A DNA stretch of 64,000 nt. Origin: Bradyrhizobium sp. WSM471. Its GTDB lineage: Bacteria; Pseudomonadota; Alphaproteobacteria; Rhizobiales; Xanthobacteraceae. Below are positions 3,638 to 55,795 of the stretch, in pieces (position 1 is the stretch's first letter; every line of letters starts with the position of its first letter). A program made the translations under genes and the position numbers. Under the pieces are notes generated by a model. That model had not been told where the DNA came from. It did not search any database and saw only the letters and a list, made by a program, of their open reading frames with translations. The stretch covers positions 2,666,001 to 2,730,000 of the forward strand of contig NZ_CM001442.1 of the NCBI RefSeq assembly GCF_000244915.1, written 5' to 3'.

Positions 3638-9925
<6,288 letters not shown>

Positions 9926-53022: not shown

Positions 53023-53364
53023 TCAGCGCGCGGCCTTCTCACCATATTGCAGGACCTGCACCTTCTCCAAGGTGATCAGGCCGCTCGACATCATGCCATC
53101 CAGGATGGGCAGGAATGCATTGATGTTGTCCTCGCTGTCGACGATCTCGACCAGCAGCGGCAGGTCTTCCGAGAGCCGCAGGATTTTGGACGTGTGGAGC
53201 CGGCTCGACTTGCCGAAGCCCATCGGGCCGCGCAGCACGGTGGCGCCGGCCAGATGCCGCTCGCGCGCCGTCATCACGATCGCTTCATAGAGCGGCTTGC
53301 CGTCGAAATGGTCGCTCTCGCCAATGAAGATCCGGAGCGAAACTGCCTGATTGGGGATTTGCAT
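53023..53364 (-). CDS. DUF190 (PII-like) protein of the fluoride operon
   Basis: 113 residues of the DUF190 family (VSLRIFIGESDHFDGKPLYE, GATVLRGPMGFGKSSRLHTS, KILRLSEDLPLLVEIVDSED). DUF190 proteins adopt a PII-like trimeric fold and are frequently encoded next to crcB. It starts 4 bp after the first crcB gene (crcB1, 53369). It may sense a ligand and modulate the channel, by analogy with PII partners; that is inference. Confidence 0.92.
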   Translation of the reverse strand: MQIPNQAVSLRIFIGESDHFDGKPLYEAIVMTARERHLAGATVLRGPMGFGKSSRLHTSKILRLSEDLPLLVEIVDSEDNINAFLPILDGMMSSGLITLEKVQVLQYGEKAAR

Positions 53365-53368
53365 GGTG

Positions 53369-53797
53369 TCAGCTCCTTCGCAAGCGGTTGGTGCCGCTGG
53401 CCATCATATGGCCTGCCCATACCGACACCAGCCAGCAAATGACGGACGCCGCGATATAGGCGAGCGCCGTGTATTTCATGCCGCCGTGGAACAGGCGGAA
53501 GGTCTCCAGGCTGAAGGTTGAAAAGGTCGTGTAGCCGCCGCAGAACCCGGTCATGACGAACTGCCGGTGCTCGGGCCGCGCCAGCACCCGGCCGTCGGGG
53601 CCGGTCAGCGTCGCGTAGAAGCCGATGATCAGAGAGCCCGTGGCGTTGATGAACAGCGTCGCGACGGGGAAGCCGGGGCCGGTGTCGAGCGCAAGCCCAA
53701 CCAGATAGCGCGTCAGCCCGCCGACCATGCTGCCGGCGGCAATCCAGGCATAGAGCGTCGCGGTGCGCCAGCGATCGGCAGAGGAGGAGGACTTCAT
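53369..53797 (-). CDS. crcB: Fluoride channel CrcB/FluC (first of a pair)
   Basis: 142 residues, four membrane helices. Motifs: GSMVGGLTRYLVGLALD (helix 1), LFINATGSLIIGFYATL (Asn in the GxxN box), and FVMTGFCGGYTTFSTFSLET, the Phe-box that lines the fluoride pore, with both conserved Phe. Flucs are dual-topology dimers or heterodimers exporting F-. A second crcB gene lies 6 bp upstream, so a heterodimer is expected. Part of the riboswitch-controlled operon. Confidence 0.95.
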   Translation of the reverse strand: MKSSSSADRWRTATLYAWIAAGSMVGGLTRYLVGLALDTGPGFPVATLFINATGSLIIGFYATLTGPDGRVLARPEHRQFVMTGFCGGYTTFSTFSLETFRLFHGGMKYTALAYIAASVICWLVSVWAGHMMASGTNRLRRS

Positions 53798-53803
53798 CTG
53801 CCT

Positions 53804-54193
53804 CTAGCCTCCCAGAGTGTCCGCGAGGAGGAAGCCGCAACTGACTGCCGCGAGGCAGAGCACGACCGAGACCGCGACATTTCCGAGCGCGTGCATCGCC
53901 TCGCCGTTGCGCGCCAGCGTCAGCGTTTGCAAGCTGAACGAGGAGACCGTGGTGTAGCAGCCAAGAAAGCCGGTGACCGCGAACAACCATGGATCGGGCG
54001 CGGCGAAGGCCGAGCCGGGATGGGTCGCCAATGCGCCAAAAATGCCGATCAGAAAGGCGCCGGTGACGTTGATGGTCACGGTGCCCCACGGAAACGTCTC
54101 GCCCAGCCGCCGGGCGATCGCGCCGGAGATGAAATAGCGCGCGCAGCCGCCGAGCACGCTGCCGATCATGATCGCAAGCACTCCGCTCAGCAC
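53804..54193 (-). CDS. crcB: Fluoride channel CrcB/FluC (second of a pair, altered Phe box)
   Basis: 129 residues from a GTG at 54193 preceded by GGGGGGC. Helix 1 has MIGSVLGGCARYFISGAIAR; the Asn box is ITVNVTGAFLIGIFGAL; the Phe box reads FAVTGFLGCYTTVSSFSLQT, so the first Phe of TTFSTF is Val and the Gly-Gly is Gly-Cys. In paired Flucs one pore is often degraded, and this subunit fits that. It ends 6 bp before the next crcB and starts 16 bp after the MFS stop. Confidence 0.9.
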   Translation of the reverse strand: MLSGVLAIMIGSVLGGCARYFISGAIARRLGETFPWGTVTINVTGAFLIGIFGALATHPGSAFAAPDPWLFAVTGFLGCYTTVSSFSLQTLTLARNGEAMHALGNVAVSVVLCLAAVSCGFLLADTLGG

Positions 54194-54209
54194 GGCGAAC
54201 AGCCCCCCG

Positions 54210-55421
54210 TCATCGTTTCTCCTCCGTTGCCAGCCCGTTGCCGACGGCAAATAGTCCCATGAGCGCGACCAGCGCGAAGCCGAGCCCCGCCAGGAACGTG
54301 CCGGCCGGACCATAGGCATCCCACAGTGCGCCGGCGATCACGCTTGCGGCCAGCAAGGCAAGGCCGGTGAACAGGTTGAAATAGCCGAACGCGGTGCCGC
54401 GCAGGCTCGGTGGCGCTGCGTCGGCGACGAGGGCCGAGAGCAGGCCTTGCGTCAATCCCATATGCAGTCCCCACAGCGCGACGCCGAGGGCGAGGCCCCC
54501 AAGGTTTGGCAGCAGCGCGAGCGCGAGATCGGCGCCGGCAAGGAAGACGAGGCCGAGCGCGAGCAGGCCGGTGCGGTTGATGCGGTCCGAGAGCGCGCCG
54601 GCCGGATAGGCCGATAATGCATAGACGATGTTCATCAGCACCAGCACGGCCGGCACCCACATCGCATTGAGCCCGATGTTCTGCGCGCGCAGGATCAGAA
54701 AGGCTTCGCTGAAACGCGCCAGCGTGAACACGACGCCAACCGCGACCACACGCCAGTACAGGGATCCAAGCTGCCGCATCGCGGCGATGTTCAGCGGATT
54801 CCTTGACGGCTCCCGGCCTGGGTCCGGCTCCGGCTCGCTCACCGCGAACGCGATCAGTCCGAACGACAGGAAGCCCGGCAGCACGGCCGCCCAGAACACC
54901 ATCGTAAAATTGTCCGCCGTCCACCACATCAGGCCGATCGCCACGAGCGGCCCGACGAACGCACCGATGGTGTCGAGCGACTGACGCAGGCCGAAGCTCG
55001 CGCCACGCAGGCCGATGGGTGCGATATCGGCGATCAGCGCATCGCGCGGCGCGCCGCGAATGCCCTTGCCGACGCGATCGATGAAGCGCGCGGCAACCAG
55101 CCATTCGACGCTGGGGGCAAGCGGGAACAGCGGTTTTGTCAGCGCGGCCAGTCCGTAGCCGAGCGCGGCGAGCAATTTGCGCCGACCGAGCCAGTCGGAC
55201 AATGCGCCGGAGAAGATCTTCGTGATCGAGGCGGTCGCCTCTGCAATGCCCTCGATGAAGCCGACCGTGAGTGTGGAGGCACCGAGCACGGTGACGAGAT
55301 AGACCGGCAACAGCGCGTGGATCATCTCGGAAGAGACATCCATCAGCATCGAGACGAAACCGAGCACCCAGATCCCCCTGGGCAGCCCCGCACGTGCAGC
55401 ATTCGGTGTTGTCGTCGTCAC
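54210..55421 (-). CDS. MFS transporter leading the fluoride operon
   Basis: 403 residues from a GTG at 55421 with AGGAG upstream. Twelve membrane helices; motif A in SGALSDWLGRRKLLAALGYG, repeated as GALSDRINRTGLLALG after helix 6. It has the layout of DHA1-type exporters. It directly follows a fluoride riboswitch and terminator and heads crcB2-crcB1-DUF190. The role in fluoride stress (export of F-, metal-fluoride complexes or an organic metabolite) is unknown. Not a recognised standard member of the fluoride stimulon. Confidence 0.9.
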   Translation of the reverse strand: MTTTTPNAARAGLPRGIWVLGFVSMLMDVSSEMIHALLPVYLVTVLGASTLTVGFIEGIAEATASITKIFSGALSDWLGRRKLLAALGYGLAALTKPLFPLAPSVEWLVAARFIDRVGKGIRGAPRDALIADIAPIGLRGASFGLRQSLDTIGAFVGPLVAIGLMWWTADNFTMVFWAAVLPGFLSFGLIAFAVSEPEPDPGREPSRNPLNIAAMRQLGSLYWRVVAVGVVFTLARFSEAFLILRAQNIGLNAMWVPAVLVLMNIVYALSAYPAGALSDRINRTGLLALGLVFLAGADLALALLPNLGGLALGVALWGLHMGLTQGLLSALVADAAPPSLRGTAFGYFNLFTGLALLAASVIAGALWDAYGPAGTFLAGLGFALVALMGLFAVGNGLATEEKR

Positions 55422-55477
55422 GTCCAGGACTTCTCCTCGGCCTCTCCTCGGCCGCTCCTTGCCTTCGCGTCCAGGCA

Positions 55478-55507
55478 ACAAAAAACCCGCCAGCGGCGGG
55501 GTTGTCC
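55478..55507 (-). terminator. Intrinsic terminator (riboswitch expression platform)
   Basis: The minus strand reads cccgcc-gct-ggcggg followed by TTTTTT. It is about 45 nt downstream of the aptamer and 57 bp before the MFS start, the arrangement for transcriptional control by fluoride. Confidence 0.85.
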
Positions 55508-55548
55508 ATGCTCCCGCCGAAGGCAGAGGCCCGAAATTGCCCCTCCTC

Positions 55549-55615
55549 TAGCAGGAGTCATCAGCCCACCACGGTCACAGGCCGCCGGGCGGTTGTCGGG
55601 GGACTCCATCCCCAT
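55549..55615 (-). ncRNA. Fluoride riboswitch (crcB motif aptamer)
   Basis: The minus strand reads GGGGATGGAGTCCCCC, then AACCGCC, then GGTGGGCTGATGACTCCTGC. GGAGT pairs with ACTCC (P1), GGGG with CCCC (P2/pseudoknot) and CCGCC with GGTGG (P3), and the conserved GATGG and CTGATGA are in place. This matches the crcB RNA motif, which binds F- through Mg2+ ions. With fluoride bound, the terminator 45 nt downstream should not form, allowing transcription of the MFS-crcB-crcB-DUF190 genes. Confidence 0.9.
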
Positions 55616-55795
55616 CCTGTGTCGCCAGCCTAACATGGAAATCGCGCCGGACAAGTGGGCGAGGTACTCTGTCCAGTGGCCCGTCAATCCGGGAGCGCAC
55701 CGGACTATTGCATTCGGGTGCCCACGATCCCGCAGTCAGCGGCGCGAGCGCGGCAACATGCCGGCAGCTTTGCGCAGTGCTTCGCAATTCCCGCC

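What the first reader, a model, noticed from the sequence alone, without database searches (positions are those of the whole stretch)
53023..55615. Fluoride riboswitch drives an MFS-crcB-crcB-DUF190 operon
A crcB-motif aptamer plus terminator lies 57 bp before an MFS gene that in turn precedes two crcB genes and a DUF190 gene, with gaps of 4-16 bp. An MFS exporter as the first, fluoride-induced gene is unusual. It may export fluoride, a fluoride-metal complex, or a metabolite that accumulates when enolase or pyrophosphatase is inhibited.
Basis: partly seen in the sequence, partly recalled or inferred. Interest (0 to 1): 0.85.

Follow-up and report, generated by a model that had tools for sequence, protein, structure and literature searches.

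The report
Fluoride-switched operon with unexplained transporter
In Bradyrhizobium soil bacteria an RNA switch that senses fluoride sits in front of a transporter gene of unknown cargo, followed by the usual fluoride channel genes; the transporter stays in place where the channel has been swapped, so it is probably a real but unstudied part of fluoride defence.

Summary
Observation confirmed: a fluoride riboswitch (RF01734, 52.7 bits), a terminator, then MFS-crcB-crcB-DUF190, then clpS.

The pairing is conserved. In 146 same-genus genomes, 76 of 77 MFS copies of at least 84% identity lie 88-151 bp behind a fluoride riboswitch; 0 of 39 more distant copies did in that search (a decayed switch was found later by one). 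A second genus has the whole operon. In 80 loci the riboswitch-MFS head is constant while the channel differs: 61 crcB-crcB-DUF190, 19 a single diverged crcB, 10 of the 19 with a DUF190 remnant. Relatives of the MFS adjoin fluoride genes in three other lineages.

The leader can form mutually exclusive folds that explain an ON switch; each holds in 98.8% of base-pair cells of 81 leaders, but too little varies for covariation to test them.

Substrate unknown. All 80 loci keep a fluoride channel and the MFS has few clade-specific changes, so I favour export of an anionic by-product of fluoride stress over free fluoride. New variant of a known kind.

The parts
55627..55654 (-). putative promoter TTGTCC (55654-55649) - 16 nt - TAGGCT (55632-55627)
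   Evidence: coordinates; strict pattern in 61 of 81 leaders, the other 20 printed and mostly differing by a letter or two, L222 by more; pattern chosen after seeing the sequences; the generic promoter scan does not call it
55545..55622 (-). fluoride riboswitch aptamer (RF01734)
   Evidence: 52.7 bits, gathering 34, full length
55550..55557 (-). CUCCUGCU: 3' strand of the aptamer pseudoknot plus the bases behind it; can alternatively pair with GGCGGGAG
   Evidence: 99.7% of cells paired over 81 leaders; paired so in the minimum-energy fold
55511..55518 (-). GGCGGGAG: 5' arm of the proposed antiterminator, and partner of CUCCUGCU
55486..55500 (-). intrinsic terminator hairpin CCCGCC-GCT-GGCGGG, T-run 55485-55480
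   Evidence: in 70 of 70 leaders that the script could parse
54210..55421 (-). MFS transporter (GTG start), 403 aa, 12-helix MFS fold predicted
   Evidence: PF07690; AlphaFold mean pLDDT 89.8
53804..54193 (-). crcB (Fluc) 1, GTG start
   Evidence: PF02537; NF010799 above its cut-off
53369..53797 (-). crcB (Fluc) 2
   Evidence: PF02537; TIGR00494 above its cut-off
53023..53364 (-). DUF190 protein
   Evidence: PF02641
52674..52979 (-). clpS adaptor gene, follows the channel genes in 80 of 80 linked loci; probably a positional neighbour
   Evidence: PF02617, NF009564; no clpS match in the 276 bp held behind DUF190 in the second genus (L222)

Best explanation
A fluoride-induced transcription-ON operon. 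Without fluoride the aptamer's 3' strand (CUCCUGCU) pairs with GGCGGGAG, which leaves CCCGCC free to form the terminator, and RNA polymerase stops before the MFS gene. With fluoride, ACUCC is held in the aptamer pseudoknot, GGCGGG is released and pairs with CCCGCC, the terminator cannot form, and the MFS, the fluoride channel subunits and DUF190 are made. The two CrcB proteins probably form a heteromeric Fluc channel that lets fluoride out. The MFS is most likely a proton-coupled exporter of a small anionic compound that accumulates or forms during fluoride stress (its family's ordinary cargo), recruited to the fluoride regulon about once in the family that includes Bradyrhizobium and then mostly kept. 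Shown: gene content, riboswitch match, conservation of gene order and of both leader folds. Inferred: fluoride response, heteromer, direction and substrate of the MFS.
For: RF01734 hit. 76 of 77 orthologues of at least 84% identity lie 88-151 bp behind a same-strand fluoride riboswitch in 146 genus genomes, against 0 of 39 more distant copies in the same search. Whole operon in a second genus (L222). Riboswitch-MFS head constant in 80 loci while the channel is crcB-crcB-DUF190 in 61 and one diverged crcB in 19; a DUF190 remnant scores above all 50 shuffles in 10 of the 19, and channel type changes at least 12 times on a quick tree of the 80 MFS genes (shuffled mean 17.1, minimum 14). One clade of 27 rows in a 156-row MFS tree holds the 23 operon copies put in it (support 94). 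Each leader fold is present in 98.8% of cells in 81 leaders, against 44-69% with partners slid by 1-3 columns. Isolated helices are of similar energy (antiterminator -12.0, terminator -11.3, anti-antiterminator -10.5 kcal/mol). The minimum-energy fold of the window's leader pairs CUCCUGCU with GGCGGGAG base for base. Relatives outside that clade adjoin fluoride genes: MFS directly before crcB (L257), MFS-DUF190-crcB in Alsobacter soli (L318), MFS-riboswitch-Na/H exchanger type (L259).
Against: Covariation does not test the leader folds: no both-sided change in the OFF set and one cell in the ON set, which 95 of 500 shuffles reach; shuffles reach the paired percentage in 47 (OFF) and 15 (ON) of 500. 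The minimum-energy fold of the whole leader does not contain the terminator hairpin, and the OFF set is computed as more stable than the ON set without its pseudoknot (-37.5 against -31.1); neither models folding during transcription. 34 of 110 riboswitch-bearing genus genomes have no linked MFS and 60 of 136 riboswitch places are not followed by it, so the MFS is not needed for fluoride defence in general. Members of the same clade lack the link: B. lablabi keeps the MFS at the same chromosomal site beside clpS with no riboswitch or crcB found (L168/L302), a Hyphomicrobiales MAG has neither (L306), and G406 has a decayed riboswitch and no crcB found around the MFS (L169). One strain lost the aptamer and keeps the operon (G495). 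DUF190 remnants were not seen in 9 of the 19 exchanged loci. Nothing identifies a substrate; 'anionic' rests on conserved basic residues (R112, R116, K119, R146, R236) whose place in the pore I did not measure.
Confidence: 0.5

Rival explanations
1. The MFS is itself a fluoride (or HF) exporter, for example a fluoride/proton antiporter that works beside the Fluc channel, as a further bacterial fluoride exporter family.
For: First gene behind the fluoride riboswitch in 76 of 77 close orthologues; stays while the channel is exchanged. A 28%-identical MFS_1 protein follows a fluoride riboswitch in a different family (G150). Nine positions set the clade apart, among them 214 (Ala in 23 of 23 linked, Glu or Asp in 99 of 116 relatives) and 380.
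Against: A crcB gene is present in 80 of 80 linked loci. Four of the nine distinguishing positions lie in the loop 211-217, and none is a polar residue that relatives conserve at 98% or more, although relatives live beside genes unrelated to fluoride.
Confidence: 0.13
2. The MFS serves an unrelated stress (metal, oxyanion or drug efflux) and was placed behind the riboswitch by chance or as a passenger; the operon is maintained for crcB.
For: Relatives stand beside ChrB (2 of 28 genus, 3 of 25 family, 8 of 51 named non-linked loci), beside an M20 hydrolase and PrsW (13 of 28 genus), or beside metal genes on plasmids. Some clade members have lost the riboswitch and crcB but kept the MFS (L168/L302, L306).
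Against: A passenger should have been lost or separated across 76 genomes and at least 12 channel-type changes; separate associations with fluoride genes recur (L257, L259, L318).
Confidence: 0.22
3. The MFS is an importer that restores something depleted by fluoride (for example phosphate or a metabolite below the blocked enolase step).
For: Phosphate and metabolite shifts are reported parts of fluoride responses (PMC11139923, passages and section 14 read).
Against: By sequence 7 of the 9 solved matches are the drug exporter NorA; structural neighbours include exporters and importers alike, so direction stays open.
Confidence: 0.12

Closest known systems
Fluoride riboswitch-crcB operons (RF01734, Fluc)
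   Same: same aptamer, same channel family, terminator in the leader
   Different: an MFS gene is placed first; the leader has an apparent anti-antiterminator between the pseudoknot strand and an antiterminator arm
Six-gene fluoride operon of Enterobacter cloacae FRM (PMC5533749, passages read)
   Same: fluoride riboswitch in front of a multi-gene operon with crcB
   Different: that operon carries ppaC, uspA, eno, gpmA, crcB, orf5249; 'MFS', 'major facilitator' and 'DUF190' do not occur in the main text
BenE-I of Pseudomonas putida (PMC13104614, abstract and passages read)
   Same: a transporter of another cargo that raises fluoride tolerance without lowering intracellular fluoride when overproduced
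   Different: not called an MFS in the text (0 occurrences); controlled by a protein regulator; tested in a crcB deletion background, where its loss raised intracellular fluoride, which the authors tie to membrane permeability
ChrB-MFS-PAP2 cassettes
   Same: MFS of the same family, 64-70% identical
   Different: stand beside ChrB_N (PF20229) and, in some, PAP2 instead of crcB

Membership tests
Fluoride riboswitch (RF01734) | covariance-model score above gathering over the full model | tested here: met
   52.7 bits against 34, positions 1-64
Fluoride riboswitch (RF01734) | loop GGAGU to ACUCC pseudoknot can form | tested here: met
   99.8% of cells paired over 81 leaders, one both-sided change
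Fluoride riboswitch (RF01734) | fluoride binding and fluoride-dependent expression | not testable with these tools
   needs in-line probing or a reporter assay
CrcB / Fluc fluoride channel | CRCB domain | tested here: met
   PF02537, both genes above cut-off; one single crcB of the exchanged form also PF02537 (L276)
CrcB / Fluc fluoride channel | fluoride conduction | not testable with these tools
   none
Major facilitator superfamily | MFS_1 profile and MFS fold | tested here: met
   PF07690 E 8e-37; model pLDDT 89.8, top matches MFSD10, NorA, YajR, LmrP
Named MFS subfamilies in NCBIfam | score above a subfamily's curated cut-off | tested here: not met
   18 NCBIfam matches, none near its cut-off
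Known bacterial fluoride exporters (Fluc, CLC-F) | the MFS protein matches the CRCB or Voltage_CLC profile | tested here: not met
   only MFS_1, Sugar_tr and, below cut-off, MFS_1_like
DUF190 | PF02641 profile | tested here: met
   E 4e-40

The most novel reading that the evidence does not exclude
The MFS family pumps out tetrahedral fluoro-anions, above all monofluorophosphate (a shape mimic of sulphate and chromate), formed in the cell when kinases meet fluoride; the same pump type serves chromate-like anions in ChrB cassettes. That would be a detoxification route for fluoride adducts, distinct from export of the ion itself. That pyruvate kinase can make fluorophosphate, and that fluorophosphate resembles sulphate and chromate, is recalled and comes from no call.
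Probability: 0.07. Interest if true: 0.85.

Novelty: new variant of a known kind. Interest (0 to 1): 0.5.

Why it matters
A 2024 review describes bacterial fluoride defence as channel or CLC export plus antiporters and inhibited enzymes made in excess (PMC11139923, passages read). A transporter that stays behind the fluoride switch through repeated exchange of the channel points to a further transport step in a large, agriculturally important genus, and it can be tested with one deletion. The leader also offers a compact switch whose competing helices can be read directly from the sequence.

Tried and rejected
Chance pairing of riboswitch and MFS: rejected by the genus survey. Start of the MFS at TTG 55481: disfavoured, it lies at the terminator's T-run, and many orthologue matches begin at residue 1 of the GTG form. 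Covariation as proof of the leader folds: tried, inconclusive, the leaders hardly vary. MFS as a member of a named efflux subfamily: no NCBIfam cut-off reached. Substrate from solved relatives: the sequence search gives NorA (7 of 9 rows), GLUT4 and one entry named MFS Transporter; the structure search gives importers and exporters alike; no substrate can be read from them. chrB-a RNA as driver of an MFS: one chrB-a hit (L224), but it lies about 0.8 kb downstream of the MFS. clpS as part of the fluoride response: it follows in 80 of 80 Bradyrhizobium loci but has no match in the 276 bp held behind DUF190 in the second genus, so more likely position than function. Pocket geometry of the MFS was not measured. 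No control was run for how often an unrelated MFS family adjoins crcB.

Rows dropped before counts: 5 of 73 order-survey riboswitch rows, all below the cut-off, were not fetched; 27 of 60 genus riboswitch places without the MFS were not fetched; of 40 unlinked MFS copies 29 were fetched, one of them the operon of G495, so shares are out of 28; 11 of 80 leaders failed an anchor pattern and were recovered, one of them by hand; the family and class searches gave loci for 30 matches each out of 50 and 40 listed; the named scan kept the best 80 of 590; the tree took 21 of the 80 linked loci plus L167 and L222; 14 distant rows and L168, L302, L169 were left out of the clade-specific residue comparison.

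One search shows 4 of 9 there, and position 214 changed from mostly acidic to Ala.
Full report
What is there. On the minus strand a fluoride riboswitch aptamer at 55622-55545 scores 52.7 bits against a gathering threshold of 34 and is the only match found in the genome. It is followed by a terminator (55500-55486, T-run to 55480), an MFS gene from GTG 55421 to 54210, crcB 54193-53804, crcB 53797-53369, DUF190 53364-53023 and, 43 bp further, clpS 52979-52674.

Is the pairing real. I searched 146 genomes of the genus for the aptamer and for the MFS. The aptamer is in 110. The MFS search gave 116 matches in 114 genomes. Joining the two tables: of 77 MFS copies with at least 84% identity, 76 lie 88-151 bp downstream of an aptamer on the same strand; of 39 with 80% or less, none did in that search. 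The exception above 84%, G495, has the operon and the terminator but has lost the aptamer. A model built from 26 order-level aptamers later found a decayed aptamer 93 bp before one 77% copy (L169, 30.3 bits); with it I scanned 28 of the 39 distant copies. Against a fixed link, 60 of 136 riboswitch places, and 34 of 110 riboswitch-bearing genomes, lack the linked MFS. In the order, 57 of 397 genomes have the aptamer; in the 68 of 73 places I read, the MFS at 89% or more follows in 9, all in this genus, and one genome of another family (G150) has a 28%-identical MFS_1 protein behind a fluoride riboswitch.

Constant head, changing channel. I read 80 linked loci: the window, 71 others from the genus survey, 4 genomes present in both surveys and 4 from the order survey. 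In 61 the order is MFS-crcB-crcB-DUF190-clpS. In 19 a single crcB, 40-45% identical to the window's, stands in place of crcB-crcB-DUF190; a copy tested is a CRCB protein (L276). Between that crcB and clpS a stretch resembling the C-terminal end of DUF190 scores above all 50 shuffles in 10 of 19 and not in 9. I infer that the two-crcB form is the older one at this site and was replaced. Channel type changes at least 12 times on a quick tree of the MFS genes, fewer than shuffled labels (mean 17.1, minimum 14), so exchange, or recombination just behind the MFS, has been frequent. The riboswitch and the MFS stayed.

Beyond the genus. Of 25 family-level loci outside the genus, one (L222, another genus) has riboswitch-MFS-crcB-crcB-DUF190, with the MFS 73% identical and the same terminator and antiterminator letters. 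Of 29 class-level loci, one (L259) has an MFS, then a fluoride riboswitch, then a Na/H exchanger-type protein; another (L257) has an MFS directly before a crcB gene, without a riboswitch found. Of 51 named non-linked loci, none has a credible riboswitch in the up to 5 kb held on each side (two matches at E 0.05 and 0.8), but Alsobacter soli has MFS-DUF190-crcB (L318). A tree of 156 MFS sequences puts the 23 operon copies given to it in one clade of 27 rows (support 94), with L222 and a Hyphomicrobiales MAG at its base and with members that lack the link: that MAG (L306), B. lablabi (L168/L302, MFS beside clpS at the same chromosomal site, no riboswitch or crcB found), and L169. L257, L259 and L318 fall outside that clade. 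I read this as one recruitment with later losses, plus separate associations; it is a quick tree, with 65 of 151 inner branches under support 80.

How the leader most likely works. The 81 aligned leaders contain CUCCUGCU, which is the aptamer's pseudoknot strand plus the bases behind it, GGCGGGAG, CCCGCC and GGCGGG with a T-run. CUCCUGCU can pair with GGCGGGAG (99.7% of cells), GGCGGG with CCCGCC (99.6%), CCCGCC with the terminator's GGCGGG (99.8%), and ACUCC with the aptamer loop GGAGU (99.8%); a further hairpin between them holds in 96.0%. The OFF and ON sets exclude each other and each holds in 98.8% of cells; sliding the partners drops this to 44-69%. There is almost no variation: no both-sided change in the OFF set and one cell in the ON set, a count that 95 of 500 shuffles reach. 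The isolated helices have similar computed energies. The unconstrained fold of the window's leader pairs CUCCUGCU with GGCGGGAG base for base, but does not contain the terminator hairpin. I conclude that ligand binding, by holding ACUCC, frees the antiterminator. This is inference from sequence, consistent with the published view that terminators often overlap crcB aptamers and that ligand should raise expression (PMC2864571, passages read).

What the MFS may do. It belongs to a broad family without a named NCBIfam match, with a confident MFS model whose nearest solved folds are MFSD10, NorA, YajR and LmrP; a fold shows no substrate. Relatives stand beside an M20 hydrolase and PrsW (13 of 28 unlinked genus loci read), beside ChrB (2 of 28 genus, 3 of 25 family, 8 of 51 named, 2 of 5 plasmid loci opened), in six of those with PAP2. 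Between 23 linked copies and 116 relatives nine positions differ consistently: four lie in the loop 211-217, including 214, which is Ala in the linked copies and acidic in 99 of 116 relatives; none is a polar residue that relatives conserve at 98% or more. A crcB gene is present in 80 of 80 linked loci. These points favour an unchanged family cargo, needed under fluoride stress, over a new fluoride pump. Relatives tied to other stresses keep the passenger rival alive, and the direction of transport is not known.

Literature. The listings of five full-text searches (1, 2, 6, 3 and 2 papers) show no paper that by title or start of abstract describes an MFS gene under a fluoride riboswitch or a Bradyrhizobium fluoride operon; I did not open those papers. 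Two more listings (1 and 3 papers) show none on DUF190 and fluoride. The paper that lists riboswitch-associated genes (Baker 2012) was not held, so an MFS entry there cannot be excluded. A 2024 review names exporters, Na/H antiporters, enolase, formate hydrogen lyase and chorismate mutase, and does not contain 'MFS' or 'facilitator' (PMC11139923; passages and section 14 read); a 2020 review's text has neither 'MFS' nor 'major facilitator' (PMC7266159; passages read). A 2026 paper shows that another transporter, BenE-I, raises fluoride tolerance in a crcB deletion strain without lowering internal fluoride, although its loss raises it (PMC13104614; abstract and passages read), a partial precedent for the favoured explanation.

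Verdict. The system is a known riboswitch class driving known channels plus one conserved and unexplained partner that I found in no paper seen: a new variant of a known kind.

Noticed in passing
L215 (G436:C15:8000-27900) and L071/L072 (G150:C22): Genomes with 11 and 8 fluoride riboswitch hits, most of them in one region, near genes for FtsH, a cyclopropane-synthase-like enzyme and a nitrate-reductase-beta-like protein (L215) and a NADH-dehydrogenase-type membrane subunit (L071).
   Followed up: partly
L212:2607-4469 (-): A CLC channel fused to a C-terminal DUF190 domain behind a fluoride riboswitch, linking DUF190 to both fluoride exporter families.
   Followed up: partly
L167 (G495), upstream of the MFS at 5001: Natural loss of the fluoride aptamer with the terminator and the whole operon kept.
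   Followed up: partly
L169:4829-4893 (+): A decayed fluoride riboswitch with a terminator-like hairpin in front of a 77% MFS, and no crcB match in the 11 kb held.
   Followed up: partly
L105 and other single-crcB loci, between crcB and clpS: Remnants of the DUF190 C-terminal end where the channel was exchanged, in 10 of 19 loci.
   Followed up: yes
L305, L308, L310, L312, L314, L173: Recurrent ChrB-MFS-PAP2 cassette in several alphaproteobacterial families.
   Followed up: partly
L092:10903-10966 and L175:199-262: Fluoride riboswitch about 4.8 kb behind a ChrB-MFS gene pair, on a Bradyrhizobium betae plasmid (with an RND pump between) and in a same-genus genome.
   Followed up: no
L224:595-670 (-): chrB-a RNA (RF03078) about 0.8 kb behind a ChrB-MFS pair.
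   Followed up: no
L094:8809-8978: Manganese riboswitch directly before an MntP-family gene, three genes after an MFS of this family on a Marinobacter plasmid.
   Followed up: no
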